Positions 2 to 21,330 of a DNA stretch of 32,888 nucleotides are shown here, one piece after another (position 1 is the stretch's first letter; each line of letters opens with the position of its first letter). Below the pieces are notes generated by a model. That model was given only the letters and a program-made list of their open reading frames with translations, was not told where the DNA came from and ran no database searches. Origin of the DNA: Pseudomonadota bacterium. Lineage in GTDB: Bacteria; Pseudomonadota; Gammaproteobacteria; Burkholderiales; Burkholderiaceae_C. The position numbers and the translations under genes were made by a program. The DNA lies in contig JAKCDM010000027.1 in NCBI GenBank assembly GCA_021841865.1, positions 1 through 32,888 on the forward strand, given 5' to 3'.

Positions 2-1819
2 CCGGCAGCCGCCCAGCCCCTGCCCGCGGCGCCTCGCGCGCCGGGCCTCGACGCCGGGCTGCTGCGCCCGCCGCCGCGGCCGGCGGCCGGCATCGCCACG
101 CTGATCGACCGCGCCGCGCATGCCATGCAGGCGCGCCGCACCTTCGGCCTTTCCCCGGCCTCGCTGGGTCTGGCCGCCGCCGACTGGTGGACCCACCTGC
201 TGACCTCCCCGGGCAAGCGACTGGAACTGGCCGACGAGGCCGCGCGCATGAGCGGCACCTATGCCAACTACCTGCTGCAGGTGCTCGCGCATCGCCACGG
301 CCAGCCGGCTCCGGAGTGCTGCGCGCAGGCCGAGGATCGCGACCGGCGCTTTCGCGACCCCGCGTGGCAGCGCTTTCCGTTCAACCTGCTGCAACAGGCG
401 TTCCTGCTGCAGCAGCAATGGTGGCAGCAGGCGACGACCGGGGTGCGAGGCGTCTCCCGGCACCACGAGCAGGTGGTGTCGTTCACCGCGCGCCAGTTGC
501 TCGACACCATGGCGCCGAACAACCTGCTGCCGACCAACCCCGAGGTGCTCGACGCGACGCTGCAAAGCGGCGGCGCGAACCTGGTGCGCGGGTTCCAGTC
601 GTGGTGGGACGACGCGCAGCGCCTGCTCAGCGGCGCGGCTCCGGCCGGTACCGAACAGTTCCTGCCCGGCAGGCAGGTGGCGCTGACCCCCGGCAAGGTG
701 GTCATGCGCAATCGCCTGGTCGAACTCATCCAGTACGCGGCGAGCACGGACAAGGTTCGTCCCGAGCCGCTGCTGATGGTCCCGGCGTGGATCATGAAGT
801 ACTACATCCTGGACCTGTCGCAGCACAACTCGCTGGTGCGCTACCTGGTGGACCAGGGCTACACCGTGTTCATGATCTCGTGGAAGAACCCCACCGGGGA
901 GGACCGCGACCTCGGCATGCAGGACTACCTGGAGTTCGGGCCGCTGGCGGCGCTGGACACCATCGGTCGCATCTGCCCGGACACGCGCGTGCACGCCGCC
1001 GGCTATTGCCTCGGCGGGACCCTGCTGTCGATCGCCGCGGCAGCGCTGGCCGCGCGCGGCGACCAGCGCCTGGCCAGCTTCAGCCTGCTGGCGTCGCAGG
1101 TCGATTTCAGCGAACCGGGCGAGTTGTCGCTGTTCATCGACGACAGCCAGGTCAGTTTCCTCGAGGACATGATGTGGGCCCAGGGCTACCTGGACACGAC
1201 GCAGATGGCCGGGGCCTTCCAGATGCTTCGCTCGTACGACCTGATCTGGTCGCGTATCACGCGCGAATACCTGCTCGGCGAACGCCGGCCGCCGAACGAC
1301 CTGATGGCGTGGAACGCCGATGCCACGCGCATGCCCTACCGCATGCACAGCGAGTACCTGCGCGGCATGTACCTCGAAAACGACCTCGCCGAGGGGCGCT
1401 GGCGGGTCGACGGCAGCGCCGTCAGCGTGGAGGACGCGCCGCAGCCGCTGTTCGTGGTCGGCACCGAGAGCGACCACGTGGCGCCATGGCGCTCGGTGTA
1501 CAAGATCCACCTGCTGACCCATGCCGAAGTCACCTTCGTGCTGACCAACGGAGGCCACAACGCCGGCATTGTCAGCGAGCCCGGGCATGTCGGGCGCTAC
1601 CACCGCTGGGCCACGCGTCAGCCCGGCAGCCCCGGGCAGCCGTACCTGGACCCCGAGCGCTGGCTGGCGCAAGCCGAGACCGCGCAGGGCTCGTGGTGGC
1701 CGCGCTGGACGGCGTGGCTGGCGCGTTACAGTTCGGAGCCGGTGGCGCCGCCAGCCCTCGGCGTGCCGGGACAGCCCCGGCTCGGCGACGCGCCGGGAAG
1801 CTATGTCCTGCAACGCTGA
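2..1819 (+). CDS. phaC: Poly(3-hydroxyalkanoate) synthase, 5' end outside window
   Basis: This is a PhaC-type polymerase that joins (R)-3-hydroxyacyl-CoA units into PHA at the granule surface. The alpha/beta-hydrolase core carries the PhaC lipase box GYCLGGT. Numbered from the Met codon at 125, the catalytic triad is Cys295, Asp450 (TESDH) and His478 (GGHNAG). The PhaC N-terminal domain is recognisable (DTMAPNNLLPTNPE around residues 128-141). The frame is open back to base 2 with no ATG, GTG or TTG before 125. The residues just upstream of Met125 (IDRAAHA) read like the start of the family's conserved N-terminal segment, so the true start lies outside the window. The gene is followed after 15 bp by the hydratase/phosphotransacylase gene, so enzymes making and consuming hydroxyacyl-CoA are adjacent. 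I am sure of the family. The exact class (class I or a Pta-linked subgroup) is less certain. Confidence 0.93.
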   Translation, partial: PAAAQPLPAAPRAPGLDAGLLRPPPRPAAGIATLIDRAAHAMQARRTFGLSPASLGLAAADWWTHLLTSPGKRLELADEAARMSGTYANYLLQVLAHRHGQPAPECCAQAEDRDRRFRDPAWQRFPFNLLQQAFLLQQQWWQQATTGVRGVSRHHEQVVSFTARQLLDTMAPNNLLPTNPEVLDATLQSGGANLVRGFQSWWDDAQRLLSGAAPAGTEQFLPGRQVALTPGKVVMRNRLVELIQYAASTDKVRPEPLLMVPAWIMKYYILDLSQHNSLVRYLVDQGYTVFMISWKNPTGEDRDLGMQDYLEFGPLAALDTIGRICPDTRVHAAGYCLGGTLLSIAAAALAARGDQRLASFSLLASQVDFSEPGELSLFIDDSQVSFLEDMMWAQGYLDTTQMAGAFQMLRSYDLIWSRITREYLLGERRPPNDLMAWNADATRMPYRMHSEYLRGMYLENDLAEGRWRVDGSAVSVEDAPQPLFVVGTESDHVAPWRSVYKIHLLTHAEVTFVLTNGGHNAGIVSEPGHVGRYHRWATRQPGSPGQPYLDPERWLAQAETAQGSWWPRWTAWLARYSSEPVAPPALGVPGQPRLGDAPGSYVLQR

Positions 1820-1834
1820 TCTACCCTGCATGCG

Positions 1835-3283
1835 ATGACCGACTGGATCGAGAACCGCCCCCTGGCCGAACTGCGCGTGGGCGACACGGCGAGCCTGACG
1901 CGCAGTTTCACGAGCGATGAACTGCAGACCTTCGCACTGGTCTCGGGTGACGTGAACCCGGCGCATGTGGACGCCGAGTACGCCGCCAGCGACGCGTTCC
2001 ACGCGGTGGTCGCGCACGGCATGTGGAGCGCGGCGCTGATCTCCAGCGTGCTGGGCACCCAACTGCCCGGCCCGGGCACCGTGTACCTCGGACAGGACCT
2101 GCGCTTCCTCGGCCCGGTGTTCGTCGGCGACACGGTGCGCGTGACGGCCACGGTCACCGCGATCGAGACCCCGGCCGACGCCCCGCCGCGCGCGCGCCTG
2201 CATTGCCGGGTGGTCAACCAGCGCAACGAGCCTGTGCTGGAGGGCGACGCGCTGGTGCTGGTTCCGCAATCCAAGGTGCGGCGCCCGCGCACCCACCTGC
2301 CGCGCCTGGAACTGCGCGATCCGGGAGTCAAGCTGCGCGCGCTGGTCGAGCAGGCGCAACGCGCGCTGGCCGGGCGCCCACCGCTGCGCTGCGCGGTGGT
2401 GCACGCGGTCGACGCGGTGTCGCTGGGCGGCGCGGTGGATGCGGCGCGAGCCGGGCTCATCGAGCCGGTGTTCGTCGGCCCCGAGGCGCGCCTGCGCGCG
2501 GCCGCGCAGGCCGCCGGGATCGACCTGTCGCCCTACGCCATCGAGCCCACCGAGCACAGCCACGCGGCCGCGGCACGCGCCGCGGCGATGGCGCGCGAGG
2601 CCAGCGTGCAGGCCATCATGAAGGGTTCGCTGCACAGCGACGAACTGCTGCGCGCGGTGCTCGACGCGTCGGCCGGACTGCGCACGCAACGACGCGTCAG
2701 CCACGTGTTCGTGATCGACGCAGTCGGCGTGCCGCGCCTGCAACTGCTGACCGACGCCGCGGTCAACGTGGCGCCCGACCTGTCGGCCAAGCGCGACATC
2801 GTGCAAAACGCCATCGACCTCGCCCACGCGCTGGGAATCGCGCAACCCCGGGTGGCGATCCTGTCGGCGGTGGAAACGGTCACGCCCGGCATGGCGTCGA
2901 CGCTCGACGCCGCTGCGCTGTGCAAGATGGCCGATCGCGGACAGATCAGCGGCGGCCTGCTCGACGGCCCGCTGGCCTTCGACAACGCGGTGTCGCTGCG
3001 CGCGGCGCAGACCAAGGGCATCGTGTCGCCGGTGGCCGGGCTCGCCGACGTGCTGGTGGCCCCCGACCTGGAGGCCGGCAACATGCTGGCCAAGCAGCTC
3101 GAATACCTCGCCGACGCCAAGGTGGCCGGTATCGTGCTGGGCGCGCGCGTGCCGGTGGTGCTGACCAGTCGCGCCGACCTGCCCGACTCGCGCATGGCCT
3201 CGTGCGCGCTGGCCGTGCTGCTCGCCACCCATGCCGCGGGCGCGCCTCCGGCGCCGGCTCGCGCCGCGGGAGAGCCGGCATGA
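1835..3283 (+). CDS. MaoC-like (R)-enoyl-CoA hydratase / phosphate acyltransferase fusion
   Basis: A 482-residue two-domain protein. Residues 1-150 form a MaoC/hotdog hydratase: the hydratase-2 motif is SGDVNPAHVD, with Asp39 and His44 as the expected catalytic pair, followed by an AHGM turn. This domain would hydrate trans-2-enoyl-CoA to (R)-3-hydroxyacyl-CoA, a PHA synthase substrate. Residues about 165-475 are a phosphate acetyl/butyryl-transferase domain (motifs IMKGSLHSDELL, DAAVNVAPD, ISGGLLDGPLAFDNA), which swaps CoA for phosphate on an acyl group. Such fusions are known as bifunctional enoyl-CoA hydratase/phosphate acetyltransferases. The Met at 1835 is preferred to the out-of-frame ATG at 1830. 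No clear Shine-Dalgarno is present, so translation may be coupled to phaC. The stop overlaps the acetate kinase ATG by four bases, consistent with transfer of acyl-phosphate to AckA. Whether the chain prefers acetyl or longer acyl groups cannot be read from the sequence. Confidence 0.92.
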   Translation: MTDWIENRPLAELRVGDTASLTRSFTSDELQTFALVSGDVNPAHVDAEYAASDAFHAVVAHGMWSAALISSVLGTQLPGPGTVYLGQDLRFLGPVFVGDTVRVTATVTAIETPADAPPRARLHCRVVNQRNEPVLEGDALVLVPQSKVRRPRTHLPRLELRDPGVKLRALVEQAQRALAGRPPLRCAVVHAVDAVSLGGAVDAARAGLIEPVFVGPEARLRAAAQAAGIDLSPYAIEPTEHSHAAAARAAAMAREASVQAIMKGSLHSDELLRAVLDASAGLRTQRRVSHVFVIDAVGVPRLQLLTDAAVNVAPDLSAKRDIVQNAIDLAHALGIAQPRVAILSAVETVTPGMASTLDAAALCKMADRGQISGGLLDGPLAFDNAVSLRAAQTKGIVSPVAGLADVLVAPDLEAGNMLAKQLEYLADAKVAGIVLGARVPVVLTSRADLPDSRMASCALAVLLATHAAGAPPAPARAAGEPA

Positions 3284-4497
3284 ACGGTGCGTTGCTGAGT
3301 CTCAACGCCGGCTCGTCGAGCCTGAAGTTCGCGCTGTTCGAGACCGCGGCCGGCTGGCACGACGGGCAGCTGCCGGTGCCGCTGCTGCGCGGCGAGATCG
3401 ACGTGCGCGACAGCCGCCCGCTGTTGCGCTACGAGCAGCCCGGGCAGCCCGAACGCAGCGTCGAGCCGCAGGCCATGCGAGGGGATATCGCGGCCGAGAC
3501 GGCCTGGCTGGTCTCCTGGATGCAGCGGGACATGGGGCTGCCGCCCCCCGGCGTGGTCGCCCACCGCATCGTGCATGGCGGTCTGCGCTTCGCGCATGCC
3601 GTGCGCATCGACGCGCAGGTCGAAAGCGAACTGCGGCGCCTGGTGTCGCTGGCCCCGCTGCACCAGGGTCCGGGGCTGGACGGCGTGCGCGCGGCGCGCG
3701 AGGCGCTGCCCGCTGCCGTGCAGGTGGCCTGCTTCGACACCGCGTTCCACGCCGGGCATGCCGACGCCGAGCGGCGCTACGCGATTCCCCGCCGCTGGCA
3801 CGAGCTCGGCTACCAGCGCTACGGCTTCCACGGCCTGTCCTTCGATGCCATCAGCCGTCGCCTTCCGGGGCTGCTCGGACAGCGGGCGCGCGGCGCCGTC
3901 GTCATCGCCCACCTGGGCAGCGGTGCCAGCATCTGCGGCCTGCGCGACCTGCGCAGCGTCAGCACCACGATGGGCTACACGGCGCTCGACGGGCTGGTCA
4001 TGGCCACGCGCTGCGGCAGCCTCGACCCCGGCCTGGTGCTGCACTGGCTGCAGCAGGACGGACTCGAGCCGTCGCGCATCTCCGACCTGCTGTACCGCGA
4101 AAGCGGCCTGCTCGGCGTGTCGCAGATCAGCGCCGACCTGCGCGAACTGCTGGCCAGCGACGACCCGCGCGCACGCGACGCGGTGGATCTGTTCACGGCC
4201 TCGGTGGTGCGCCACGTCGGCGCCGTCGCGGCGAGCATCGGCGGACTCGACGCGCTGGTGTTCACCGGAGGCATCGGCACCCACCAGGCGCCGGTGCGCG
4301 AGGCGGTGGCCGCGCGCCTGGGCTGGATGGGCGTGTCGCTGGACACCGAGGCCAACGAGGCCGGCGCCACGCTGGTGTCGGGCAGTTCCAGCCGGGTCCC
4401 GGTGCTGGTGCTGCGCACCGACGAGGAGGCGGTGATGGCGCTGCAGGCCGCCGAGCTCGCCGGCACGCGCGCGCGGCGCGTCGCGCACGCCGGCTGA
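3280..4497 (+). CDS. ackA: Acetate kinase
   Basis: A 405-residue acetate kinase of the ASKHA fold that makes ATP from acetyl-phosphate and ADP. All residues expected for catalysis are present: Asn9 in NAGSSSLKF, Arg96 in HRIVHGG, His128, Asp153 in FDTAFH, His184 in YGFHGLS, Arg244 in ATRCGS and the TDEE glutamates near 382-383. The ATGA overlap with the upstream fusion fixes the start and implies translational coupling. One departure from the usual family pattern is APLHQGPGL at about 125-133, where most AckA proteins have APLHNP; the catalytic His is kept. With the phosphotransacylase it forms a substrate-level phosphorylation pair. Propionate or butyrate kinase activity cannot be excluded. 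Confidence 0.95.
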   Translation: MNGALLSLNAGSSSLKFALFETAAGWHDGQLPVPLLRGEIDVRDSRPLLRYEQPGQPERSVEPQAMRGDIAAETAWLVSWMQRDMGLPPPGVVAHRIVHGGLRFAHAVRIDAQVESELRRLVSLAPLHQGPGLDGVRAAREALPAAVQVACFDTAFHAGHADAERRYAIPRRWHELGYQRYGFHGLSFDAISRRLPGLLGQRARGAVVIAHLGSGASICGLRDLRSVSTTMGYTALDGLVMATRCGSLDPGLVLHWLQQDGLEPSRISDLLYRESGLLGVSQISADLRELLASDDPRARDAVDLFTASVVRHVGAVAASIGGLDALVFTGGIGTHQAPVREAVAARLGWMGVSLDTEANEAGATLVSGSSSRVPVLVLRTDEEAVMALQAAELAGTRARRVAHAG

Positions 4498-4504: not shown

Positions 4505-5773
4505 ATGAACCTGGCACTGCCTCCGCTGCTGCTGCAGTTCGCCGCCACCACGGTGCTGGCCTTCGTGCTCGGCCTGGAACTGCATGGATACCGGCGATCG
4601 CAGGACGAGGGCGTCGGCTTCGGCACCACCCGCACGCTGACCCTGATCGGCGCGGCGGGATTCGTGTTGTGGCTGCTCGACGGATCGAGCCCGCGGGGCC
4701 TGTACCTGGCCGGGCTGGTGGCGCTGGCGGCGTGGCTGGCGGTGGACCTGGCACGCAGCGAGGCATCGTCGGCGGGCCGCGGCGCGCTGCTGCCCGGGGT
4801 CATCGCGCTGCTTGCGTACGCGCTCGGCCCGCTGGTGCAGACCCAGCCCGAATGGATGCCCGCGGCGCTGTTGATCGTGGCCATCCTGATGCTCGCCGAG
4901 AAGCCGATGATCCGCAAGCTGTCGGACGCCATGCCTGTGTCCGAGGGGGTCACGCTGGCCAAGTTCCTGATCATCGCCGGGCTGGTGCTTCCGCTGCTGC
5001 CGGACACTCCGATTCCCGGGCTGCCCGGCATCAGCTACTCCAAGGTCTGGCTGGCGGTGGTGCTGATCTCGGCCATTTCCTACTCCGGCTACCTCGCCCA
5101 CGCCTATGTGTTCCCGAAGGCCTCGACCCTGCTGACCGGGCTGCTCGGCGGCGTGTACTCGAGCACCGCCGCCACCGTGGTGCTGGCGCGCCAGGCGCGC
5201 CAGGATCCGTTGACTGCGCGCCAGGCGCCGGCCGCCACGGTGCTGGCCACGGCGATGATGTACGCGCGCCTGTGGGCCGTCATCGCCGTGCTGGGGCACC
5301 GCGACGCCGCGCTGCGCCTGGCGCTGCCCTTCGGCGCGCTGTTCGCGATCAGCCTGTGCGTGACCTGGCTGCTGTGGCGCGGCGCCGGCGACGCTGCCGG
5401 CGAACCCGCCAGCCTGGGCTCGCGCAACCCGCTGGATCTTCCGGTGGCGTTCCTGTTCGCCGCGCTGTTCGTCGCGTTCGCCGCGCTGACCGGCTTCGTC
5501 ACCAGCCATTTCGGGGTCGGCGGGCTCAACGTGCTGAGCTTCGTCGTCGGCCTGAGCGACATCGATCCCTTCGTGCTGTCGCTGCTGGCCGGGCATTTCC
5601 AGGTCAGCGATGCCGCCGTGATCCACGCCGTGCTGATCGCGTCGGGCAGCAACAACCTGCTCAAGGCCGGCTACGCGCTGGCGCTTTCGCGACGCCGCAG
5701 CATGCTGCCGGCGGCGGCATGGCTGGTGCTCAGCCTGCTGCTGTCGCTCGGCTGGGCCACCTGGGGAGCCTGA
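4505..5773 (+). CDS. MgtC/SapB N-domain plus DUF4010 integral membrane protein
   Basis: A 422-residue, strongly hydrophobic protein with roughly a dozen predicted membrane segments. The first about 140 residues match the MgtC/SapB pattern (a TVLAFVLGLELHGYRR segment followed by GFGTTRTLTLIG). The rest resembles DUF4010 (SGYLAHAYVFPK, then GLLGGVYSSTAATVVLARQ, then GFVTSHFGVGGLNVLSFVVG). MgtC proteins are linked to magnesium limitation and to control of ATP synthase in some bacteria. The role of the DUF4010 fusion is unknown, and transport is only a guess. The start follows the ackA stop by 7 bp, so it is the last gene of this operon. A perfect 20-bp palindrome lies just after its stop. Confidence 0.85.
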   Translation: MNLALPPLLLQFAATTVLAFVLGLELHGYRRSQDEGVGFGTTRTLTLIGAAGFVLWLLDGSSPRGLYLAGLVALAAWLAVDLARSEASSAGRGALLPGVIALLAYALGPLVQTQPEWMPAALLIVAILMLAEKPMIRKLSDAMPVSEGVTLAKFLIIAGLVLPLLPDTPIPGLPGISYSKVWLAVVLISAISYSGYLAHAYVFPKASTLLTGLLGGVYSSTAATVVLARQARQDPLTARQAPAATVLATAMMYARLWAVIAVLGHRDAALRLALPFGALFAISLCVTWLLWRGAGDAAGEPASLGSRNPLDLPVAFLFAALFVAFAALTGFVTSHFGVGGLNVLSFVVGLSDIDPFVLSLLAGHFQVSDAAVIHAVLIASGSNNLLKAGYALALSRRRSMLPAAAWLVLSLLLSLGWATWGA

Positions 5774-5803: not shown

Positions 5804-6913
5804 TCAGGCGCCGCGGCGCCCGAACCACCATGCCGCGGCAGCCATGCTGCACAGGCCGATGAGCGCCAGCGGCAGGTACTGCGGCAGCAACTGCCGCACC
5901 GAGGCAGCCTGCAGGAACACGTCGCGATTGATGACCAGGAAATAGCGCATCGGGTTCAGCAGGGTCAGCCATTGCACAACGCGCGGCATGTTGGCGATCG
6001 GAGTGGCGAAGCCCGACAGGATCACCGCCGGCACCATGAACAGGAACACCCCGAGCAGGCCCTGCTGCTGGGTTCGCGCGATCGACGAGATCAACAGCCC
6101 GATGCCGACCGCCGCCACCAGGAACAGCGCCATGCCGATGCCCAGCGCGAGCACGCTGCCGGTGAACGGAACGCCGAACCACAGCACCGCCATCAGCACG
6201 GTGAACACGCCCTCGACGGCGCCGATCAGCACCCCGGGCAAGGCCTTGCCGAGCAGGATCTCGCCCGGGCTCATCGGCGTGACCAGCAACTGGTCGAAGG
6301 TGCCCAGTTCGCGCTCGCGCGCCACCGAAAGCCCGGTGACCAGCAGCGTGATGACCAGCATCAGCAGCGCCACGATGCCGGGCACGATGAACCAGCGCGA
6401 CAGCAAGCCCGGGTTGAACCAGGCGCGCATGCGCAGGCGCGCCGGAGCCGCCGGCCAGGCGTGGGCTGCCGCCCACTGGTCGTTGAACTCCTCCAGCACG
6501 CCGTTGACGTCGCCCTGCACGATGGCCGCGGTGTTCGAATCACGTCCGTCGATCAGCACCTGCAGTCGGGCGCCGCGGCCGTCGAGCAGATCGCGCGAGA
6601 AATCGGGGCCGACATGCAGCACAAGAAGCGCCCGGCGCTCGTCGATCCAGGTTCGCATCTGCTGCTGCGAATGCAGTGTCGCCACGCGCCGGAACTCGCC
6701 TGAGCCGTCGAAGCGCGCCAGCAGCTGGCGCGCGGCGCGGCCTCCGTCCTGGTCGTAGACGGCGTAGGCGATGTGGTTCAGGTCGAAGGTCGCGGCGTAG
6801 CCGAACACCATCAGCTGGATCAGCGGCGGCCCGATCAGCACGGCACGGCTGGCGCCGTCACGCAGCAGCGCGAGCAGTTCCTTGACGATCAACGCGCGGA
6901 TGCGTTGCCACAT
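5804..6913 (-). CDS. ybhR: ABC-2 exporter permease, YbhR-like
   Basis: A 369-residue ABC-2 type permease. It has one N-terminal membrane segment (ALIVKELLALLRDG, then LIGPPLIQLMVFGYAATF), a large periplasmic region with the DGRDSNTA motif seen in YbhR, and five further membrane segments. The start ATG at 6913 gives MWQRIRALIVKELL, matching the family start. It lies 11 bp after the stop of the sister permease. It should pair with that permease and the double ATPase to export a small molecule. In E. coli the YbhFSR system affects tolerance of some drugs and exchanges Na+ or Li+; the substrate here is unknown. It is the last gene of the operon. Confidence 0.88.
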   Translation of the reverse strand: MWQRIRALIVKELLALLRDGASRAVLIGPPLIQLMVFGYAATFDLNHIAYAVYDQDGGRAARQLLARFDGSGEFRRVATLHSQQQMRTWIDERRALLVLHVGPDFSRDLLDGRGARLQVLIDGRDSNTAAIVQGDVNGVLEEFNDQWAAAHAWPAAPARLRMRAWFNPGLLSRWFIVPGIVALLMLVITLLVTGLSVARERELGTFDQLLVTPMSPGEILLGKALPGVLIGAVEGVFTVLMAVLWFGVPFTGSVLALGIGMALFLVAAVGIGLLISSIARTQQQGLLGVFLFMVPAVILSGFATPIANMPRVVQWLTLLNPMRYFLVINRDVFLQAASVRQLLPQYLPLALIGLCSMAAAAWWFGRRGA

Positions 6914-6924
6914 GGTCGCCTCGC

Positions 6925-8040: not shown

Positions 8041-8042
8041 GC

Positions 8043-9840
<1,798 letters not shown>

Positions 9841-9854
<14 letters not shown>

Positions 9855-14478: not shown

Positions 14479-14513
14479 GGCATGCTCCAGGAAGCGGGCT
14501 GGCGGCTGCGCCG

Positions 14514-15080
14514 TCATTTGGTCCTGCGTGGCGCAGCGCGCCGGGCCGCGGGCGGCGCGGTGTCGGGCTCGGCGCCCGGCGCCGCCGCGCCTTGCGTCAG
14601 GCGCTGCATCTGCTCGTTGAGCGAGCGCGCCACCTGCGCCTGCGAGCGCGACCAGCTCTGCATGGCCTGCGCCAGCAGCTCCGCCGGGCCGCGCATCCAG
14701 TCGGTCTGCCCGTCGGCCTGCGCTGGCGCGGCCTCGGCCACGGACTTCCACGCTCGCTGCATGTCGTCCATTCCCTGCTGCAAGGCCTGCGCGAAACCGG
14801 CCTGCATGGATCCGGCGATCTCCCCGAGCCGCTGCAGGTACTGCGCGGCACGCTCGCCGTCGCCGCGCAAGGCCTGGTTGGGCAGGCCGGCCCATTGCTG
14901 CGGCTCGCGCGCGTCCAGCGCCTCGCGCATGCTCCGCGAGCCGTGCTGCGCGAGATCGCGCAAGGCCTGCAGTTGCAAGCGGCTGAGCTGGTCCAGGCCG
15001 TCGAGCGTGACGTCGAACATGCCGGTGAGGCATTGGAGTTCGGCGCGCTGCGCGGCCTGCAGGTGTTCGCTGGGGTTCAT
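14514..15080 (-). CDS. Phasin-family granule-associated protein
   Basis: A 188-residue amphipathic helical protein with the phasin_2 pattern: AELQCLTGMFDVTLDGLDQLSRLQLQALRDL near the N-terminus (residues about 13-44; quoted in parts as AELQCLTGMFD and LDQLSRLQLQALRDL) and a Gln/Ala-rich helical centre. The tail is basic and proline/alanine-rich (PAARRAAPRRTK). Phasins coat PHA granules. Two adjacent ATG codons (15083 and 15080) follow an AGGAG element, and the second has the better 6-nt spacing. It is first in the operon phasin-phaB-ppk2-usp, and its promoter holds an FNR-like box. Confidence 0.82.
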   Translation of the reverse strand: MNPSEHLQAAQRAELQCLTGMFDVTLDGLDQLSRLQLQALRDLAQHGSRSMREALDAREPQQWAGLPNQALRGDGERAAQYLQRLGEIAGSMQAGFAQALQQGMDDMQRAWKSVAEAAPAQADGQTDWMRGPAELLAQAMQSWSRSQAQVARSLNEQMQRLTQGAAAPGAEPDTAPPAARRAAPRRTK

Positions 15081-15146
15081 CATAGGCTCCTGGCGTGTGC
15101 CGGCGCCGCCGCGCACGGCGGTGTCGGGCCTGGGACATGCATCCCG

Positions 15147-15188
15147 AGTGTCGGTCCATACGGGGCTGATGTCCTTGACGTGGATCAG
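15147..15188 (-). promoter_or_regulatory. FNR/Anr-like promoter of the phasin-phaB-ppk2-usp operon
   Basis: In the direction of transcription the box is CTGATCCACGTCAA (15188 to 15175; reverse strand TTGACGTGGATCAG), matching 8 of the 10 defined bases of TTGAT-N4-ATCAA. After exactly 22 nt comes GACACT (15152-15147), a weak -10, giving a box centre at -41.5 and a start near 15140. The same box, spacing and ACACT-CGGGA element recur before the next gene cluster at 17268-17309. Regulation by an FNR-type protein is inferred. Confidence 0.55.
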
Positions 15189-15195
15189 CGCAACC

Positions 15196-17187
15196 CTATA
15201 GACCGAAAGGATAGGTGTCGGGAACTCCGTCCAGCGCCATGGTGTCCAGCGGGTGGATCGCCGTGGTGCGGTCGATCCAGATGTATTCGTCGTACTGGCG
15301 CGGCAGTACCGACTCGAAGTAGTGACTGGCCATTTCGCTGTCCGGGCGATAGATCACGCCGATCGCGCGCTGCAGGCGCGCCTGCAGAAGCCCGGCGAGT
15401 TCGCCGGACGGGCCCACGTCGCGCAGCGGCAGCAGCAGGCCCGGAATCCCGCTGTCGTGGAAAACCCGCTCGTAGCTGTCGGGGGCCGACGGGCGCACGT
15501 CCATGCGCTGCATCTCGCCGCCCCATTGCGATGCCGCGGCGACCTTGCCGGCGTGGGTGCCGAAGCCGATGCTGTACGCCTGCTCCCCGAACACCTTGCG
15601 ACACAGGCGCCCGATGTTGAACTCGCCGCGCAGCGCCATCTCGGTGGCCGCGGAATCGCCGATGTGCGAATTGTGGGCCCACACCACGGCGCGGCTTCGC
15701 GGACCGCGGAAGTCCAGCAGCGTGCGCAAGGTCTCGAACATGTGTCCATCCCGCAAGTTCCACGACGCACGCGAGCCGTAGTACATGGTGCGGTAGTAGC
15801 GCTCGGCGTTGGCCACCAGGCGCGCGTTCTGCAGCGCGTCGAGAAAGCGCTCGCCGTCCTGCGCGGCATAGTCCGCGTGCTTGTGCAGCATGTCGCGCAG
15901 CATCGCCACCACCTCGGTCTCGCAGGAGCGGTAGCGCGCGGTCAGCGCCGCCTGCGCGTACGCGGCGGGGTCGCTCTCCCACGGGCTGAGGCAGCCATAG
16001 CGCTGGCGCGCCACGCGCGCCGTGTCCGGGTCGATGCCGTCGAGGTACTCCAGCACGCGCTCGATCGAGCCGTACAGGCTGTACAGGTCGAGCCCGTGGA
16101 AGGCCACGCGCTGCGCGGGTCGCAGCCCGGCATTGAAGCGGTGCAGCCAGTCGACGAAGCCGGCAACCTCCTGGTTGCGCCACATCCATGTCGGGAAGCG
16201 CGCGAAGGCCTTCCAGGGCGCCGCCGGCGCCTCGACGTGGCGCACGTAGTGGTCGATTCGCGCGCCGTCGGGCCAGTCGCCCTCGATGGCCACGAAGTCG
16301 AAGCCCCTGCGCTCGATCAGCGCGCGGGTGATGCGCTGGCGCATGAGATGGAATTCGGCGCTGCCGTGCGAGGCCTCGCCGATCAGCACCACGCGCGCCA
16401 GCCCGATGCGCCGCAACAGCGGCTCGAGGTCGACGTCGTCGAGATCGTCGAAGGACTCGCCGTCGCGCCCGACGGCCACTGCCAGCCCGGCATCGCCGGC
16501 GCCCTTCGGCAGCGAAGGCGCCGGCATGCGCGAGGCCTCGAACAGCGCGCCGCCGAGCAGCGGAGCGACGTGCAGGTCGGCGATGTCCTCGCTCTGGTAC
16601 TGCAGCTCCGAGATTCGCCGTACCCGCACCAGCTCGTGGGCCCGTGCGCTGCTGGGCACCGGCATCACCAGGCGCCCGCCGCGCAGCAGCTGCTCGCGCA
16701 GCGTACGCGCGTCGACCTCGAGCCCGGGGTGCACGACGATGGCGTCGAACGGAGCCTGCTCGGGCCACCCGCCGGCGGCGTCGCCGTGCATCACGTGCAC
16801 GTTGTGCGGGCCGTGGCGCGAAAAGCGCTCCGCGGCCTGCTCGGCCAGGCGTGCATCGGGCTCGACCGTGTAGACGTCGGCGGCGATGCGCGCCAGCACC
16901 GCGCTGCCATAGCCGCAGCCGGTGCCGATCTCGAGCAGCTTCTCGCCGCCGCGCAGGCCGAGCGCTGCGATGCCCAGCGCCAGTGCGTGCGGCTGCGCCA
17001 GCACCCTGCCCTGCGGCAGCGGCAGCGAGGTGTCCTCGTATGCGAACTCGCGCATTTCCGGAGGCAGAAACTCCTCGCGAGGAACTGCCAGCATGGCGTC
17101 GAGCACGAGCGGCTCCTGCACGCCGCGCGCGACGATCTGATGGTGCACCATCCACTGCCTGCGGCGTGGGAAATCCGGGTGGTTCAT
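15196..17187 (-). CDS. Isoaspartate-methyltransferase-like / erythromycin-esterase-like fusion
   Basis: A 663-residue fusion. Residues 1-210 resemble protein-L-isoaspartate O-methyltransferase, with SAM motif LLEIGTGCGYG (84-94). The usual active-site block GQTISQP reads GRVLAQP (60-66), so isoaspartate repair is doubtful. Residues about 245-655 form an erythromycin-esterase-superfamily domain with GEASHGSAEF (His274), AIEGDWPD (Glu302) and VVWAHNSHIGD, the conserved His/Glu sites of the family. Most such non-resistance homologues have no proven substrate. The ATG at 17187 has GGAGG 6 nt upstream, which decides the start over longer frames. It stands alone between two FNR-like promoters. Resistance to macrolides should not be assumed. 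Confidence 0.88.
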   Translation of the reverse strand: MNHPDFPRRRQWMVHHQIVARGVQEPLVLDAMLAVPREEFLPPEMREFAYEDTSLPLPQGRVLAQPHALALGIAALGLRGGEKLLEIGTGCGYGSAVLARIAADVYTVEPDARLAEQAAERFSRHGPHNVHVMHGDAAGGWPEQAPFDAIVVHPGLEVDARTLREQLLRGGRLVMPVPSSARAHELVRVRRISELQYQSEDIADLHVAPLLGGALFEASRMPAPSLPKGAGDAGLAVAVGRDGESFDDLDDVDLEPLLRRIGLARVVLIGEASHGSAEFHLMRQRITRALIERRGFDFVAIEGDWPDGARIDHYVRHVEAPAAPWKAFARFPTWMWRNQEVAGFVDWLHRFNAGLRPAQRVAFHGLDLYSLYGSIERVLEYLDGIDPDTARVARQRYGCLSPWESDPAAYAQAALTARYRSCETEVVAMLRDMLHKHADYAAQDGERFLDALQNARLVANAERYYRTMYYGSRASWNLRDGHMFETLRTLLDFRGPRSRAVVWAHNSHIGDSAATEMALRGEFNIGRLCRKVFGEQAYSIGFGTHAGKVAAASQWGGEMQRMDVRPSAPDSYERVFHDSGIPGLLLPLRDVGPSGELAGLLQARLQRAIGVIYRPDSEMASHYFESVLPRQYDEYIWIDRTTAIHPLDTMALDGVPDTYPFGL

Positions 17188-17267: not shown

Positions 17268-17309
17268 AGTGTGCGCCGCGGGCGAGCCCCTTTCCTTGAC
17301 GTGGAGCAG
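17268..17309 (-). promoter_or_regulatory. FNR/Anr-like promoter of the methyltransferase-esterase gene
   Basis: The box CTGCTCCACGTCAA (17309 to 17296) is followed after 22 nt by CACACT (17273-17268) and then TCGGGA. It differs from the phasin box at one base of 14. The left half is less canonical (7 of 10 defined bases). The predicted start is an A near 17261, about 74 nt ahead of the ATG. The resemblance to the phasin promoter is seen directly; the regulator is inferred. Confidence 0.5.
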
Positions 17310-17331
17310 CTTGGCGCCGGCTCAGTGAAGC

Positions 17332-18729
17332 TCAGCGCAGCAGGATCGGCTCGCCTGCGCCGGGAATCTGGTGCGGCACGCCGTGCTGCTCCAGCAGCTC
17401 GGCGAAGCCCTGCATCGCGCTGTCGAGGTCCCCGTGCACCAGGAACACCCGCCGCGGCCTGCCGCAGGCCTGGAGCCACTGCAGCAGCTCGCCGCGCCCG
17501 GCATGCGCGGAAAATCCGTTGATGGTGTGCACCCGCGCCCTGACCTCCACCTGCTCGTCGAACAACCTGACCGCCTTCGCGCCGTCGATGATGCGCCGCG
17601 CCAGCGTGCCCTGCGCGGCGAAGCCCACGAACACCACGCTGGCCGAATCGTTGCCCAGGTTGTGACGCAGGTGGTGGCGCACGCGCCCGCCGCTGCACAT
17701 GCCCGAGCCGGCCATGATCACCGCGCCGCCGCGAATGGTGTTGATGGCCATCGATTCGGCCGTGTCGCGGGTCATGCGCAGTCCCGGCAGGCTCAGCGGA
17801 TCCGTGCCGTGCAGTCGCCTGGCGAACTCCGGCCGCAGGCAGCCGGGGTAGCGCAGGAAGATCTCGGTCGCGGAAATGGCCATCGGCGAGTCGAGGAACA
17901 CCGTCAGGTGCCGCGGCAGGCGCCCGGCCTCGACGCCCCACGCCAGCGCGTACAGCACCTCCTGCGCGCGCTCCAGCGCGAAGGTCGGGATGATCACGTT
18001 GCCGCCGCGCGCGTGGGTGTCACCCACCGCCTGCACCAGTTCGTCCACCGACTCCTGCCAGCCGCGGTGGTCGCGATCGCCGTAGGTGGTCTCCATGAGC
18101 ACGTAATCGGGCGTCGAGCCAGGCACCTGCGGGTCGCGCAGCAGCGGGCGTCCGGGGTTGCCGATGTCCCCGGAGAAATAGATGCTGCGCCGCGTGTCCG
18201 CGTCTTCGACCTCGAGCAGGATCGACGCCGAGCCGAGGATGTGGCCGGCGTCGTGGAAGGTCGCATGCACCCCCGGCGCCACGTGCATGGGCTGCCCGTA
18301 GGACACGCTGGCGTCGAAGAAATCCATGCTGTGGAAGGCGTCGGCCAGTGTGTAAAGCGGTTGCGCCTGCGCCTCGTGACGCCACGGGTGGCGCTGCGCG
18401 CGGTGCGCCTCCTCCTCCTGCAGCCCGGCGGCATCGACGAGCACCAGGCGGGCCAGCTCGCGGGTCGCCGCGGTGCACACGATGCGGCCCCGAAAGCCCC
18501 GCTTGACCAGCAGGGGAATGCGCCCGCAATGGTCGAGGTGGGCATGCGTCAGCAGCAGCACGTCGATGCTGCCGGGGTCGAAGCCGAATTCCTCGGCGTT
18601 CTCCTCGGACAGCTCGCGCCCGCCCTGGAACATGCCGCAGTCCACCAGCACGCGGGCATGATCGGTCTGCAGCAGATGGCACGATCCGGTGACCTGCTTG
18701 GCCGCGCCATGGCACGAAAGACGAATCAT
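17332..18729 (-). CDS. Beta-CASP metallo-beta-lactamase ribonuclease-type protein
   Basis: A 465-residue protein of the CPSF/RNA-specificity MBL group. The metal site is THAHLDHCGRIP, with further ligands in GHILGSA and FSGDIG. The beta-CASP part has METTYGDRDH, PTFALERAQEVLY, DSPMAISAT, GSGMCSGGRVRHHL, INGFSAHAGRGELL and FLVHGD, in the right order and at full length. Homologues act as RNA endo- or exonucleases. The ATG overlaps the stop of the PRPP-synthetase-like gene by four bases, so the two are translationally coupled. Nuclease activity is known for the family; the target RNA is unknown. Confidence 0.92.
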   Translation of the reverse strand: MIRLSCHGAAKQVTGSCHLLQTDHARVLVDCGMFQGGRELSEENAEEFGFDPGSIDVLLLTHAHLDHCGRIPLLVKRGFRGRIVCTAATRELARLVLVDAAGLQEEEAHRAQRHPWRHEAQAQPLYTLADAFHSMDFFDASVSYGQPMHVAPGVHATFHDAGHILGSASILLEVEDADTRRSIYFSGDIGNPGRPLLRDPQVPGSTPDYVLMETTYGDRDHRGWQESVDELVQAVGDTHARGGNVIIPTFALERAQEVLYALAWGVEAGRLPRHLTVFLDSPMAISATEIFLRYPGCLRPEFARRLHGTDPLSLPGLRMTRDTAESMAINTIRGGAVIMAGSGMCSGGRVRHHLRHNLGNDSASVVFVGFAAQGTLARRIIDGAKAVRLFDEQVEVRARVHTINGFSAHAGRGELLQWLQACGRPRRVFLVHGDLDSAMQGFAELLEQHGVPHQIPGAGEPILLR

Positions 18730-19646
18730 GATGTCGCTCCCGGTTGCGGCGCCGCGATGTCGCGCAGCGCCTCGGCGAGCTCGCCGTCGAGCTCGATCCG
18801 CTCCACTCCCGGCGGCGCGTCGACGCTGTCGGTGCATGCCAGGCGCGCGGCGCCGGCGGCGCGCAGCACCGGCAGCGCGTCGCGCGCGAACAGCCCGTGG
18901 GTGACCACGCACACCGCGCCCGCCAGCCCCTGCGCGCGCAACTGTTCCAGCACCACCGCCAGCGTGCGCCCGGAGCTCGCGATGTCGTCGAGCAGCACCG
19001 GGGTGCACTGCCGCCACTGCGCCAGCCCGGGCAGGCTGCTGGACACGTCGAGGTCGCCGCGGCGCTGCTTGTCCAGCACCAGCATCGGCGCGCCGATGCG
19101 CGACGCGACGTCGGCCACCCACTGCCGGCTCTCGGCATCGGGTCCGATGAGCAGCGGGCGCCGGATCTGCGCGGCGATCCAGCGCGCGAGCGCCGGCGCC
19201 GCATGCACCACGCGCGCGCGCAGCGCGTAGACCTGATCCAGCGACGCGATGCGGTGCAGGTGGGGGTCGACGGTCAGCAGCCAGTCGAAATGCGCCGACA
19301 GCCAGCGCGCGTAGATGCGTGCCGACACTGCCTGGCCGGGCTCGAAGGCGCGGTCCTGGCGCATGTACGCCAGGTACGGCGCGACCAGCCCCACGCTGCC
19401 GGCGCCGAGTTCGCGCAGCGTGGCGGCGGCCATGAGCAGCGGCACGCTGAGCCGGTCGGGGTCGCGCAGCGTGCACACCAGCGCGGCCGGACCCGCGGGC
19501 GGCTGCACGCGCACCAGCGACTCGCCGTCGGGAAAACGGTGCAGCTCGAGCGCGGCGCGCGCGGCCGCGTCGCCCAGGCGCGCCGCCAGCGCATCGGCGC
19601 GCGCCTCGTTGCCCGGCATCGCATACAGCTGCAGTGCGCTGGTCAC
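18726..19646 (-). CDS. PRPP-synthetase-like (ribose-phosphate pyrophosphokinase family)
   Basis: A 306-residue member of the ribose-phosphate pyrophosphokinase family. Seen are the ATP-site segment RQDRAFEPGQAVSARIYARWL, LTVDPHLHR, a catalytic-loop-like KQRRGD and the PRPP loop LLDDIASSGRTL. Canonical Prs has DDxxDTGGT in the loop, so this belongs to a divergent subgroup. It could make PRPP from ribose-5-phosphate or run in reverse. The GTG start at 19646 is chosen because AGGAG lies 6 nt upstream. It sits between the AMP-phosphorylase-like gene (78 bp upstream) and the MBL nuclease gene (4-bp overlap). The housekeeping prs is presumably elsewhere. Confidence 0.85.
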   Translation of the reverse strand: MTSALQLYAMPGNEARADALAARLGDAAARAALELHRFPDGESLVRVQPPAGPAALVCTLRDPDRLSVPLLMAAATLRELGAGSVGLVAPYLAYMRQDRAFEPGQAVSARIYARWLSAHFDWLLTVDPHLHRIASLDQVYALRARVVHAAPALARWIAAQIRRPLLIGPDAESRQWVADVASRIGAPMLVLDKQRRGDLDVSSSLPGLAQWRQCTPVLLDDIASSGRTLAVVLEQLRAQGLAGAVCVVTHGLFARDALPVLRAAGAARLACTDSVDAPPGVERIELDGELAEALRDIAAPQPGATS

Positions 19647-19724: not shown

Positions 19725-21260
19725 TCAGGCGTGTTCGAGATGAATGATCGCCGGGTGATGCCGAACGAAGTCCAGCGCGTAATCGAGTTCGCCCTGCGAC
19801 TCGGCGTGCAGCTCGAACAGCGCCTGGCCGCGCTCGACATGCTCTCCCACATGCGCATGCAGCAGCAGCCCCGCGGTCGGCGCGTGCGGCGCGCCGGCGA
19901 GCTTGGCCGCGCGCGCCAGCAGCCGGTTGTCGATGGCCTGCACGCGGCCCGCGTGCGCCGCGGGCACCGGACGCTGGAACGGTGCCACGCCGGGTTCGCG
20001 GAACGCGCCCTGCGCCTGGCAGATGGCCTGGAACTTGCGCCAGGCGCGCCCGTCGGCCAGCACCTGCGCGGCGAGCTCGCGCGCGGCGGCGCCGGACTGC
20101 AGCCCGCCGAGCTCGACGACGGCGCCGGCCAGGTCCAGCGCACGCTGGCGCAGGTCATCGGGGGCCTGCGGGTGGTTGGCCAGCACGCGCAGCACGTCGT
20201 GGGCTTCCAGCGCCGGGCCCACCCCGCGGCCCACCGGCTGGGAACCGTCGGTGATCACGCCGACCAGCTTGAGGTCCAGCGCGCGGGCGCTGGCGCCGAG
20301 CGCGCGCAGCAGCGATTGCGCCTGCTCGGGGCTGCGCACCTTGGCCGTCGGCCCGGTCGGGATGTCGATCACGACGTGGGTCGAGCCGGCGGCCGCCTTC
20401 TTCGACAGCACAGACGCCACGAGCTGGGCCTCGCTGTCGAGGTCGAGCATGCGCTCGACCCGGATCAGCAGGTCGTCGGCGGGGCTCATGTTCATCGCCC
20501 CGCCCCACACCATGCAGCCGCCCTCGCTGTCGACCACGCGGCGCATCTGCTCGAGATCGAGGTCGACGCGCGTGATGGTCTCCACGGTGTCGGCGGTGCC
20601 GGCCGGCGACGTGATGGCGCGCGAGCTGGTCTTGGGCATCACCAGGCCGAGCGCGGCGACGATGGACACGACGATCGGCGTCGTGCGGTTGCCCGGCAGG
20701 CCGCCGATGCAGTGCTTGTCGACCACCAGGCCCTGGGGCCAGTTCATGCGGGCGCCGCTGTGCACCATCGCGCGGGTCAGGCTGGTGACCTCGGCCGGGC
20801 TCATGCGCCCGCCGGCGCAGGCCACCAGGAAGGCGGCGATCTCGACATTCGACAGGCGTCCGGCGACGATGTCGCCGATCACCGCCTCGAAGGCGCCCTC
20901 GCGCAACGGACTGCCGAAGATCTTGGCCCGCACATGGCTCATCGCGTCGCTGGGGCGGGCGAAGCGAAAGCCCAGGCGCTCGTCGGCTGCCGGCTGCAGG
21001 CGCCGCCAGGCCGCCTCCGAAAGGCCGACCTCGTCGGGGCCCAGCAATTCCCCGGAAGTGAGGATGTTGAGCGTGGCCACGATGCTGGCGCGCGCTCCCA
21101 CGACCTCGATGCGCGCGTGGGCCTCGAAGCCCTCGGCACGCACCACGGGGGAGTCGGCGCGCAACACCACGACCGGCTCGTGATGGGTATCGATTCCCAG
21201 GCGCCGCGCCCGCAGCGAGCACGGCGGCGTCGCGGTGGCCGCGTCGGTTTCGTGGGTCAT
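19725..21260 (-). CDS. AMP-phosphorylase-like 'thymidine phosphorylase' family enzyme
   Basis: A 511-residue nucleoside phosphorylase family II protein. It is longer than bacterial DeoA (about 440), carrying an extra N-terminal domain of about 90 residues as in archaeal AMP phosphorylase. The core motif at 181-193 is DKHCIGGLPGNRTT, followed by PKTSSRAITSPAGTADT. These match the AMP-phosphorylase version rather than the DeoA version (KHSxGGVGD, SGRGLGHTGGT). Family members convert a nucleoside 5'-monophosphate and phosphate to base and ribose 1,5-bisphosphate. The ATG at 21260 has GGGAG 6 nt upstream. It is probably first in an operon with the PRPP-synthetase-like and MBL genes. Annotation pipelines usually call it thymidine phosphorylase, which the motif argues against. 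Confidence 0.88.
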   Translation of the reverse strand: MTHETDAATATPPCSLRARRLGIDTHHEPVVVLRADSPVVRAEGFEAHARIEVVGARASIVATLNILTSGELLGPDEVGLSEAAWRRLQPAADERLGFRFARPSDAMSHVRAKIFGSPLREGAFEAVIGDIVAGRLSNVEIAAFLVACAGGRMSPAEVTSLTRAMVHSGARMNWPQGLVVDKHCIGGLPGNRTTPIVVSIVAALGLVMPKTSSRAITSPAGTADTVETITRVDLDLEQMRRVVDSEGGCMVWGGAMNMSPADDLLIRVERMLDLDSEAQLVASVLSKKAAAGSTHVVIDIPTGPTAKVRSPEQAQSLLRALGASARALDLKLVGVITDGSQPVGRGVGPALEAHDVLRVLANHPQAPDDLRQRALDLAGAVVELGGLQSGAAARELAAQVLADGRAWRKFQAICQAQGAFREPGVAPFQRPVPAAHAGRVQAIDNRLLARAAKLAGAPHAPTAGLLLHAHVGEHVERGQALFELHAESQGELDYALDFVRHHPAIIHLEHA

Positions 21261-21269
21261 GGCCGGCTC

Positions 21270-21284
21270 CCAGGATGATCCTGG
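21270..21284. promoter_or_regulatory. Palindrome at the transcription start/leader of the phosphorylase gene
   Basis: CCAGGAT and ATCCTGG are perfect 7-base arms around one base. In the minus-strand transcript they give CCAGGATCATCCTGG, a 6-bp stem with a 3-nt loop directly before the GGGAG ribosome-binding site. It covers roughly -3 to +13 of the predicted start. It could be an operator or a leader hairpin. Confidence 0.35.
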
Positions 21285-21288
21285 CGCC

Positions 21289-21330
21289 AGCATAGCCACG
21301 AATGCGAGCGGGAGTATTGATTTAATCCGA
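21289..21330 (-). promoter_or_regulatory. FNR/Anr-like promoter of the phosphorylase-prs-MBL operon
   Basis: The box TCGGATTAAATCAA (21330 to 21317) has a perfect promoter-proximal ATCAA half and a poor distal half. After exactly 22 nt comes TATGCT (21294-21289), the best -10 match of the set (4 of 6). The predicted start is A at 21282, leaving a 22-nt leader. The box overlaps the stop codon of the potassium-channel gene. FNR control is inferred from spacing shared with three other gaps. Confidence 0.45.

What the first reader, a model, noticed from the sequence alone, without database searches (positions are those of the whole stretch)
2..21330. Candidate oxygen-limitation island combining PHA storage, substrate-level ATP, polyphosphate, nucleotide salvage and export
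Seen: all four larger gaps between 10 kb and 21.4 kb hold an FNR-like box with class II spacing, while the gaps in 25.9-30.1 kb (yihY, carbonic anhydrase, porin, nitronate monooxygenase) hold none. Genes seen: PhaC, MaoC-Pta, AckA, PhaB, phasin, PPK2, Usp, AMP-phosphorylase-like, PRPP-enzyme-like, MBL nuclease, esterase-like fusion, YbhGFSR/TolC. Inference: PHA acts as electron sink while Pta-AckA and PPK2 supply ATP or nucleotide phosphates and the phosphorylase module recycles nucleotides. I know of FNR/Anr control of Usp, PHA and acetate genes in other proteobacteria, but not of this full set as one regulon.
Basis: inference. Interest (0 to 1): 0.8.

Follow-up and report, generated by a model that had tools for sequence, protein, structure and literature searches.

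The report
Low-oxygen survival gene island in Thiomonas
In a sulfur-oxidising bacterium, neighbouring genes for carbon storage, fermentation-type energy, stress proteins, RNA and nucleotide breakdown and export share conserved switches of the kind used by an oxygen sensor, and the set closely resembles a survival locus already known in Burkholderia.

Summary
The four named gaps each carry an FNR/Anr-like box exactly 22 bases from a -10-like hexamer; 1, 2, 2 and 7 of 300 shuffles score as well, and the gaps to the right score 0-9 against 10-11. In related Thiomonas-group loci the box with its -10 is kept at phasin (23 of 24), tolC (13 of 13) and hlyD (14 of 16); phaC has a box in 12 of 14, mostly without the spacing; AMP phosphorylase 6 of 11 and PCMT-esterase 5 of 14 are weaker. 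The genome has two FNR-type proteins, and related sites precede ccoN and fnr.

This is an lxa-like island with added AMP phosphorylase-PRPP, PPK2, phasin and PCMT-esterase. Modules come and go, and in some genus members the phaC unit lies elsewhere.

Oxygen response and metabolic roles are inferred; no expression or enzyme data exist. The boldest open reading is a heterodimer-type FNR site controlling an RNA-to-ribose-bisphosphate module.

The parts
2..1819 (+). PHA synthase (PhaC), 5' end cut by the contig start
   Evidence: PF07167 8.9e-55; TIGR01838 1e-155, below its cut-off
1835..3283 (+). bifunctional MaoC hydratase-phosphate acetyl/butyryltransferase
   Evidence: NF006045 5.4e-200, over cut-off
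3280..4497 (+). acetate/propionate kinase (AckA)
   Evidence: PF00871 1.1e-90; TIGR00016 294.3 bits, cut-off 293.4
4505..5773 (+). DUF4010 membrane protein
   Evidence: PF13194 1.3e-49
5804..10851 (-). exporter operon: two ABC-2 permeases (5804-6913, 6925-8040), dual ATPase (8043-9854), HlyD-type adaptor (9841-10851)
   Evidence: RbbA (NF033858) and PRK03598 matches, below their cut-offs; drrA and RND_mfp over cut-off
10932..10937 (-). -10-like hexamer GACAAT of hlyD promoter, 22 bases from shared box
10960..10973 (.). FNR-like box shared by the divergent tolC and hlyD promoters, 22 bases from each -10
   Evidence: tolC 13 of 13 and hlyD 14 of 16 genus loci score 10 or more
10996..11001 (+). 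-10-like hexamer TAGCAT of tolC promoter
11044..12417 (+). TolC-type outer membrane channel
   Evidence: PF02321 4.1e-47; TIGR01844 over cut-off
12442..12885 (-). universal stress protein
   Evidence: PF00582 2e-27
12905..13726 (-). polyphosphate kinase 2 (PPK2)
   Evidence: TIGR03707 353.3 bits, cut-off 301.8
13753..14517 (-). acetoacetyl-CoA reductase (PhaB-like)
   Evidence: TIGR01829 334.6 bits, cut-off 302.1
14514..15083 (-). phasin
   Evidence: PF09361 2.2e-12; TIGR01841 38.5 bits, cut-off 30.2
15147..15152 (-). -10-like hexamer GACACT of phasin promoter
   Evidence: GAYACT in 13 of 13 aligned sequences
15175..15188 (-). FNR-like box CTGATCCACGTCAA, phasin-phaB-ppk2-usp promoter
   Evidence: 23 of 24 genus loci with box and -10; 13 of 13 aligned
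15196..17187 (-). PCMT methyltransferase fused to erythromycin-esterase-family domain
   Evidence: PF01135 4.8e-39, PF05139 3.8e-132
17268..17273 (-). -10-like hexamer CACACT of PCMT-esterase promoter
   Evidence: CACACT in 10 of 12 aligned sequences, CAGACT and CAAACT in the other two
17296..17309 (-). FNR-like box CTGCTCCACGTCAA with degenerate upstream half-site
   Evidence: box and -10 sum of 9 or more in 13 of 14 loci, downstream half TCAA in 12 of those 13; 10 or more in 5 of 14
17332..18729 (-). beta-CASP metallo-beta-lactamase-fold RNase, TTHA0252 type
   Evidence: PF10996, PF07521; PDB 2dkf/3iek 4e-91
18726..19646 (-). ribose-phosphate diphosphokinase-like enzyme
   Evidence: NF005537 355.6 bits, cut-off 322; 1u9y 1.3e-28
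19725..21260 (-). AMP/thymidine phosphorylase-family enzyme
   Evidence: NF003338 639 bits over cut-off; TIGR03327 AMP_phos 436.8 below its cut-off of 535; PDB 4ga5 4.1e-94
21289..21294 (-). -10-like hexamer TATGCT of AMP-phosphorylase promoter
21317..21330 (-). FNR-like box TCGGATTAAATCAA of AMP-phosphorylase operon; overlaps the end of the potassium-channel gene
   Evidence: 6 of 11 genus loci score 10 or more against 0.045 in shuffles

Best explanation
This is an lxa-like low-oxygen survival island of a Thiomonas-group bacterium. Shown: the main transcription units (phaC-maoC/pta-ackA-DUF4010; tolC; hlyD-ABC; phasin-phaB-ppk2-usp; PCMT-esterase; AMP phosphorylase-PRPP-RNase) have FNR/Anr-type boxes upstream in the window or, for phaC, in relatives; for all but phaC the box in the window lies 22 bases from a -10-like hexamer (centre -41.5, class II). 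Conservation is strong for phasin, tolC, hlyD and the phaC box, weaker for PCMT and AMP phosphorylase. Inferred: when oxygen falls, the 4Fe-4S FNR proteins bind the boxes and recruit RNA polymerase. PHB synthesis then takes up reducing power, Pta-AckA yields ATP from acyl-CoA, PPK2 exchanges phosphate between polyphosphate and nucleotides, the RNase and phosphorylase release bases and ribose phosphates, Usp and PCMT-esterase protect or repair, and the exporter removes an unknown solute.
For: Four boxes with exact 22-base spacing in the window, rare in shuffles. Conserved alignments of the phasin and PCMT promoters. Genus enrichment against shuffles and neighbouring control genes. phaC boxes of 7-9 of 10 in 14 of 14 loci. 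Two FNR-type proteins with C-x2-C-x5-C and a central Cys; one gene lies about 4 kb from ccoN on the same contig and has CTGATCTGCATCAG before it, and ccoN has TTGATACATGTCAA. An FNR-type match of 46% identity or more in 28 of 28 genus genomes. The lxa locus has the same core families and is induced by low oxygen. Fnr1 of Herbaspirillum directly controls phaC1, phbA2 and a phaC2 operon, and two uspA genes with Fnr3. Related gene sets elsewhere, with five boxes of 9 or more against 0.4 expected in a Sulfitobacter plasmid stretch.
Against: No expression, binding or enzyme data. Single boxes are weak (7-8 of 10) and nine of the 14 places scoring 10 or more in the window lie inside genes. The AMPp box is missing in the outer part of the genus (L122, L247, L256, L269). 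In 39 family loci 6 have a box of 8 or more before AMPp against about 1.5 expected, but five of the six lie within 40 bases of the start codon. phaC class II spacing is met in 4 of 14 only; the control gene FMN reductase reaches 3 of 14 against 0.062. ccoN does not show the 22-base spacing (counted by eye). The phaC unit is not beside the rest in G171 and lies on other contigs in G150, G166 and G169. In B. thailandensis, oxygen-limited stationary cells had less PHA synthase and Usp, so the direction of response is not universal.
Confidence: 0.8

Rival explanations
1. The boxes are bound by another CRP/FNR-family regulator with the same half-site, such as a nitric-oxide-responsive Dnr-type protein, so the signal is not oxygen itself.
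For: 11 HTH_Crp_2 matches in the genome, 8 over the cut-off (one of these, L008, looks GntR-type to me by eye). A third protein, L006, has C-x2-C and a central Cys but not the full pattern. Outer-clade genomes carry extra paralogs. Anr and Dnr share the box (recalled).
Against: Related sites precede ccoN and fnr, typical oxygen-controlled genes. The lxa precedent answers to low oxygen.
Confidence: 0.1
2. It is a conserved chromosomal neighbourhood of PHA, acid-stress and salvage genes that answer to different signals; the boxes serve only some units. (This overlaps with the best explanation.)
For: Neighbouring genes without boxes (Kch, GlcD, FMN reductase, YihY) keep the same order. Modules are lost independently and the phaC unit is elsewhere in some genomes. 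Thiomonas lives in acid mine drainage and polyphosphate is tied to acid resistance there. PCMT and AMPp boxes are the weakest.
Against: Boxes are found at each main promoter of the island that the window holds and mostly not at the neighbours.
Confidence: 0.12
3. The boxes are chance matches in a G+C-rich window.
For: Scores of single boxes are 7-8 of 10, and nine of 14 places scoring 10 or more lie inside genes.
Against: Conservation in the genus with exact spacing while flanks diverge.
Confidence: 0.02

Closest known systems
lxa (low-oxygen-activated) locus, Burkholderia cenocepacia BCAM0275A-BCAM0323 and B. contaminans
   Same: Usp, acetate kinase, PhbB, PHA polymerase, phosphate acetyl/butyryltransferase, MBL protein of about 51 kDa, ABC transporter genes (in B. 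contaminans also HlyD and outer-membrane efflux genes); CRP-family regulators proposed; patchy presence
   Different: No lxa HSP20, BON protein, phosphofructokinase or cytochromes among the window genes scanned; window adds AMPp-PRPP, PPK2, phasin, PCMT-esterase, DUF4010, and holds one Usp, not six.
Fnr regulon of Herbaspirillum seropedicae
   Same: Fnr1 directly controls phaC1, phbA2 and a phaC2 operon; two uspA genes co-controlled by Fnr1 and Fnr3; hybrid motif like the phasin box (passages)
   Different: No single island of these genes in the passages that I saw
Anr/CydR control of PHB in Pseudomonas extremaustralis and Azotobacter
   Same: Oxygen-sensitive FNR-type control of pha genes (passages of a review)
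   Different: Those passages treat PHA genes, not an island of this make-up
Archaeal pentose bisphosphate pathway
   Same: Phosphorylase of the same superfamily; best match structure 4ga5 (that it is the T. kodakarensis AMP phosphorylase is recalled)
   Different: No R15P isomerase found in the genome, which is 92% complete

Membership tests
lxa-type low-oxygen island | Usp, Pta, AckA, PhaB, PHA synthase, MBL protein and exporter genes together | tested here: met
   against the table in PMC4981469; by family name, not by sequence comparison with the lxa proteins
lxa-type low-oxygen island | induction by low oxygen and need for anoxic persistence | not testable with these tools
   no expression data or mutants
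lxa-type low-oxygen island | several Usp, HSP20, BON protein, phosphofructokinase | tested here: not met
   one Usp; none of the others among the window genes scanned (ORFs 26429-26593 and 31924-32856 were not scanned). I do not know that these define the kind, since lxa content varies by strain
FNR/Anr class II promoter | TTGAT-N4-ATCAA-like box centred near -41.5 with -10 element | tested here: met
   for phasin, tolC, hlyD, PCMT, AMPp of the window; for phaC the spacing is met in 4 of 14 relatives only
FNR/Anr class II promoter | 4Fe-4S FNR regulator in the genome | tested here: met
   Cys pattern in L001 and L002; the cluster itself is not testable
FNR/Anr class II promoter | binding and oxygen response | not testable with these tools
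   no experiment possible
Archaeal AMP phosphorylase-R15P isomerase-RuBisCO pathway | AMP phosphorylase | tested here: inconclusive
   in the superfamily, but below the AMP_phos equivalog cut-off
Archaeal AMP phosphorylase-R15P isomerase-RuBisCO pathway | R15P isomerase | tested here: not met
   no TIGR00511 match in G000; two RuBisCO large-subunit matches present, form not determined

The most novel reading that the evidence does not exclude
The island uses a two-FNR code: near-symmetric TTGAC-N4-RTCAA sites at phaC, and asymmetric sites (first base not T, C/G then C/T at positions 6 and 7, last base A) at phasin and, less cleanly, at PCMT-esterase and AMP phosphorylase, read by an FNR heterodimer as proposed for Herbaspirillum. 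Under this control an RNA-to-energy module runs when respiration stops: the beta-CASP RNase makes nucleotides, the phosphorylase turns NMPs into ribose 1,5-bisphosphate, and the paired PRPP-synthetase paralog, not an isomerase, takes the next step, either making PRPP or running in reverse to regain ATP.
Probability: 0.2. Interest if true: 0.7.

Novelty: new variant of a known kind. Interest (0 to 1): 0.45.

Why it matters
It carries the lxa idea, known from cystic-fibrosis Burkholderia, to an environmental sulfur-oxidising genus, and supplies something I did not see for lxa (the original lxa paper was not held): a conserved promoter footprint that predicts the regulator, the sites and the operons. 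A related gene set with FNR boxes sits on a Sulfitobacter plasmid, which suggests a modular kit for surviving without oxygen that reaches beyond this order. The phosphorylase-PRPP pair, adjacent in 36 of 39 loci examined, poses a testable unsolved step in bacterial nucleotide metabolism.

Tried and rejected
Chance boxes: rejected by conservation and shuffles. Recent mobile island in this genus: no base-composition step and conserved order with neighbours argue against; outside the genus related sets do sit on plasmids, so older transfer is open. FNR control of AMPp in the wider family: 6 of 39 against about 1.5 expected, but mostly too near the start codon, so not adopted. Archaeal-type R15P route: no isomerase found; PhnN only a sub-cut-off match. 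Scanning long ORFs first gave many frames without a family match; replaced by a codon-based caller. Literature: searches returned no paper; searches listed no paper that I recognised as describing this island. That I saw no report of it in Thiomonas rests on the listings and on passages of PMC2829063. Papers were seen as passages except section 5, part 1 of PMC4981469; all others as listings.

Corrections after checking: an earlier count said 16 phaC loci and 34 of 39 AMPp-PRPP pairs; two phaC loci were duplicates (14 distinct), and one search shows 36 of 39. The odds of the best explanation went from 0.82 in my draft to 0.80 because the phaC unit is not beside the rest in several genomes.

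Rows left out: one search used the window, L122 and L240-L278 (27 of the 28 genus genomes; G154 had no stretch fetched; L279 not used) and dropped loci with too little upstream sequence; one search shows such dropped loci for tolC (L242) and phasin (L262).
Full report
Setting. The window is G000:C40:1-32888, in a draft genome of 3.45 Mb in 212 contigs, 92% complete. In the scan with the PCMT-esterase protein the nearest record is a 'Proteobacteria' bin (97% identical) and the nearest named genus is Thiomonas (sp. FB-6, 70%). The genus of the window holds 28 genomes in the collection, itself included; the contig of FB-6 and contig C21 of G150 have the same length, 52531, so I call it the Thiomonas group.

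Genes. A codon-based gene caller and Pfam/NCBIfam scans give: PhaC (cut by the contig start), MaoC-Pta, AckA, DUF4010 on the plus strand; two ABC permeases, dual ATPase and HlyD adaptor on the minus strand; TolC on the plus strand; then Usp, PPK2, PhaB, phasin, PCMT-esterase, beta-CASP RNase, PRPP-synthetase-like and AMP phosphorylase on the minus strand; then a potassium channel, GlcD-like, FMN reductase, YihY, an unnamed ORF, carbonic anhydrase, porin, nitronate monooxygenase, acyl-CoA dehydrogenase. The RNase matches TTHA0252, the phosphorylase 4ga5. The esterase domain is of family PF05139 only; I make no claim of drug resistance.

Boxes in the window. The seven gaps to the right score 0, 0, 0, 9, 0, 0, 0. 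The window as a whole has 14 places of 10 or more against a mean of 2.0 in 20 shuffles; nine of the 14 lie inside genes, among them the highest (17741, score 13, in the RNase gene). In the tolC/hlyD gap a single box lies 22 bases from a -10 on both sides. With the consensus alone, up to two mismatches, the window has 9 matches against 1.56.

Conservation. In 12 Thiomonas-group loci plus the window the phasin promoter reads CTGATC-N3-GTCAA, 22 bases, GAYACT in 13 of 13 while the flanks diverge. At PCMT, 9 of 12 keep CTGCKCCACGTCAAGG and CACACT, L050 and L051 have GTGTTCCACGTCAAGG with CAGACT or CAAACT, and L052 a weak CTGTTCCAGCGCAA with CACACT. A wider set (window plus 40 genus loci from 27 genomes; 280 bases each; 30 shuffles each) gives a sum of 10 or more in phasin 23 of 24 (shuffles 0.046), tolC 13 of 13 (0.062), hlyD 14 of 16 (0.042), AMPp 6 of 11 (0.045), PCMT 5 of 14 (0.007), phaC 4 of 14 (0.048), Usp 4 of 23 (0.036), RNase 2 of 14 (0.002). 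The two hlyD misses are by deduction L122 and L247, whose HlyD matches are only 31% and 34% identical. Box alone of 8 or more at phaC: 12 of 14 (0.062); the box lies more than 100 bases upstream, so a first look at 160 bases in L050 and L051 had missed it. Neighbouring controls: Kch 1 of 14 (0.010), GlcD 1 of 15 (0.009), FMN reductase 3 of 14 (0.062), YihY 0 of 14, orf26k 0 of 7, CA 1 of 4, NMO 0 of 2, porin 0 of 2, ACAD 0 of 1. Inner genes: PPK2 1 of 21, PhaB 2 of 23, MaoC-Pta 0 of 18, AckA 0 of 18, DUF4010 0 of 19, PRPP 0 of 13, as expected of operons. The loci are related, so the counts are not independent.

Regulator. The genome has two FNR-type proteins with C-x2-C-x5-C near the N terminus and a central Cys. 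One gene starts about 4 kb from ccoN on the same contig. It has CTGATCTGCATCAG 22 bases before TATAAC; ccoN has TTGATACATGTCAA without that spacing (spacings counted by eye). Each of 28 genus genomes has an FNR-type match of 46% or more; the L001 type at 59% or more is in 15 (Cys patterns of relatives not checked). In the phasin box position 1 is C in 21 of 23, position 6 C or G in 22, position 7 C or T in 22, and the last base A in 23 of 23. That fits the paper's description of the hybrid Fnr3-Fnr1 motif of Herbaspirillum. PCMT boxes fit in these positions in 13 of 13; AMPp boxes less so. Against a strict heterodimer reading, G171 keeps the box (L251) although only one FNR-type match of 40% or more was listed for it (93% complete).

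Synteny. Phasin has PhaB beside it in 21 of 23 genus loci with a phasin match. At the locus, AMPp-PRPP-RNase is missing as a unit in L050-L052, the exporter is not found between Usp and DUF4010 in L045, L046, L049, L050, L051 and L083 (L051 keeps a partial TolC match, seen), and Pta-AckA is missing between DUF4010 and PhaC in L050 and L051. In G171 phaC-pta-ackA lies about 70 kb from the rest on one contig, and in G150, G166 and G169 on other contigs. An ATP synthase operon lies between PhaB and Usp in L248 and beyond Usp in L279.

Outside the genus. AMP-phosphorylase homologs, distant DeoA-type ones included, occur in 69 of 150 family genomes. In 39 fetched loci (one, L122, of the same genus) the PRPP-like gene is beside AMPp in 36; the RNase is in the stretch in 9, all among the 11 loci of 55% identity or more, and about 5 kb off in one of them (L123). 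Outside the genus the only PHA matches are a PhaB-like one of 32% (L128) and a PhaC-like one of 33% (L135), both some 8 kb off; PPK2 is in L128, Usp in L123, L124 and L130. The RNase has a match, often weak, in 198 of 300 genomes of the order; in 20 of the 22 best places DUF4010 is near in 4 and the exporter in 2. One (L289) reads AckA, phosphoketolase, SulP, DnaJ, DUF4010, RNase, PEP-utilising dikinase. Four of 40 listed plasmid hits were opened, picked by me, so this is no frequency: Sulfitobacter HlyD, Usp, RNase, AckA, MaoC-Pta; Acidovorax ppk2, RNase, AMPp, PRPP; Ciceribacter Crp/Fnr, PRPP, RNase, AMPp; Thiothrix Usp, RNase, P-type ATPase, SulP. The Sulfitobacter stretch has five boxes of 9 or more against 0.4 in base shuffles, all five between genes and within 350 bases of an annotated start; the other three stretches have one each (expected 0.1, 0.2, 0.4), in Thiothrix inside the RNase gene.

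What is known. The lxa table in PMC4981469 (section 5, part 1) lists Usp, acetate kinase, PhbB, PHA polymerase, Pta/Ptb, an MBL protein and ABC transporter genes, in B. contaminans also HlyD and outer-membrane efflux genes, with three CRP-family genes as putative regulators. Passages of PMC6127331, PMC3759415, PMC9104464, PMC8509486 and PMC9733578 tell of low-oxygen induction and anoxic persistence. The original paper (Sass 2013) is not held and I have not seen it. Fnr control of PHB genes is known. So the kind is known; this is a new variant with its own modules and a promoter footprint.

Mechanism. Shown: the gene set, the boxes, their spacing and conservation, the presence of FNR-type proteins, and the recurrence of the families. 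Inferred from family knowledge: the oxygen response, the roles of PHB as electron sink, of Pta-AckA and PPK2 in energy supply, and of RNase, phosphorylase and PRPP-like enzyme in nucleotide use. The substrate of the exporter is unknown.

Noticed in passing
L248:2030-8573, L279:518-6247: An ATP synthase operon lies in the island of two outer-clade genus members, between PhaB and Usp in L248 and beyond Usp in L279; by layout it may be an N-type ATPase (recalled).
   Followed up: partly
17741-17754: A box of 9 of 10 with a -10-like hexamer lies inside the RNase gene, in the coding direction; the same 14-mer occurs in several relatives' loci. It may be only conserved coding sequence.
   Followed up: no
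19725-21260 and 18726-19646: The AMP phosphorylase and PRPP-like genes are adjacent in 36 of 39 loci, mostly without the rest of the island.
   Followed up: partly
15196-17187: The PCMT-esterase fusion has relatives in alpha- and gammaproteobacteria, planctomycetes and Synechococcus, mostly without this neighbourhood.
   Followed up: no
25994-26410: A 138-residue protein without a Pfam match at 1e-6, conserved in position in genus loci.
   Followed up: no
L337:3223-18987: A Sulfitobacter plasmid stretch with an lxa-like gene set holds five boxes of 9 or more of 10.
   Followed up: partly
L130: A perfect box TTGATGCCGATCAA lies upstream of the RNase gene of an RNase-AMPp-PRPP run in another genus of the family.
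   Followed up: no
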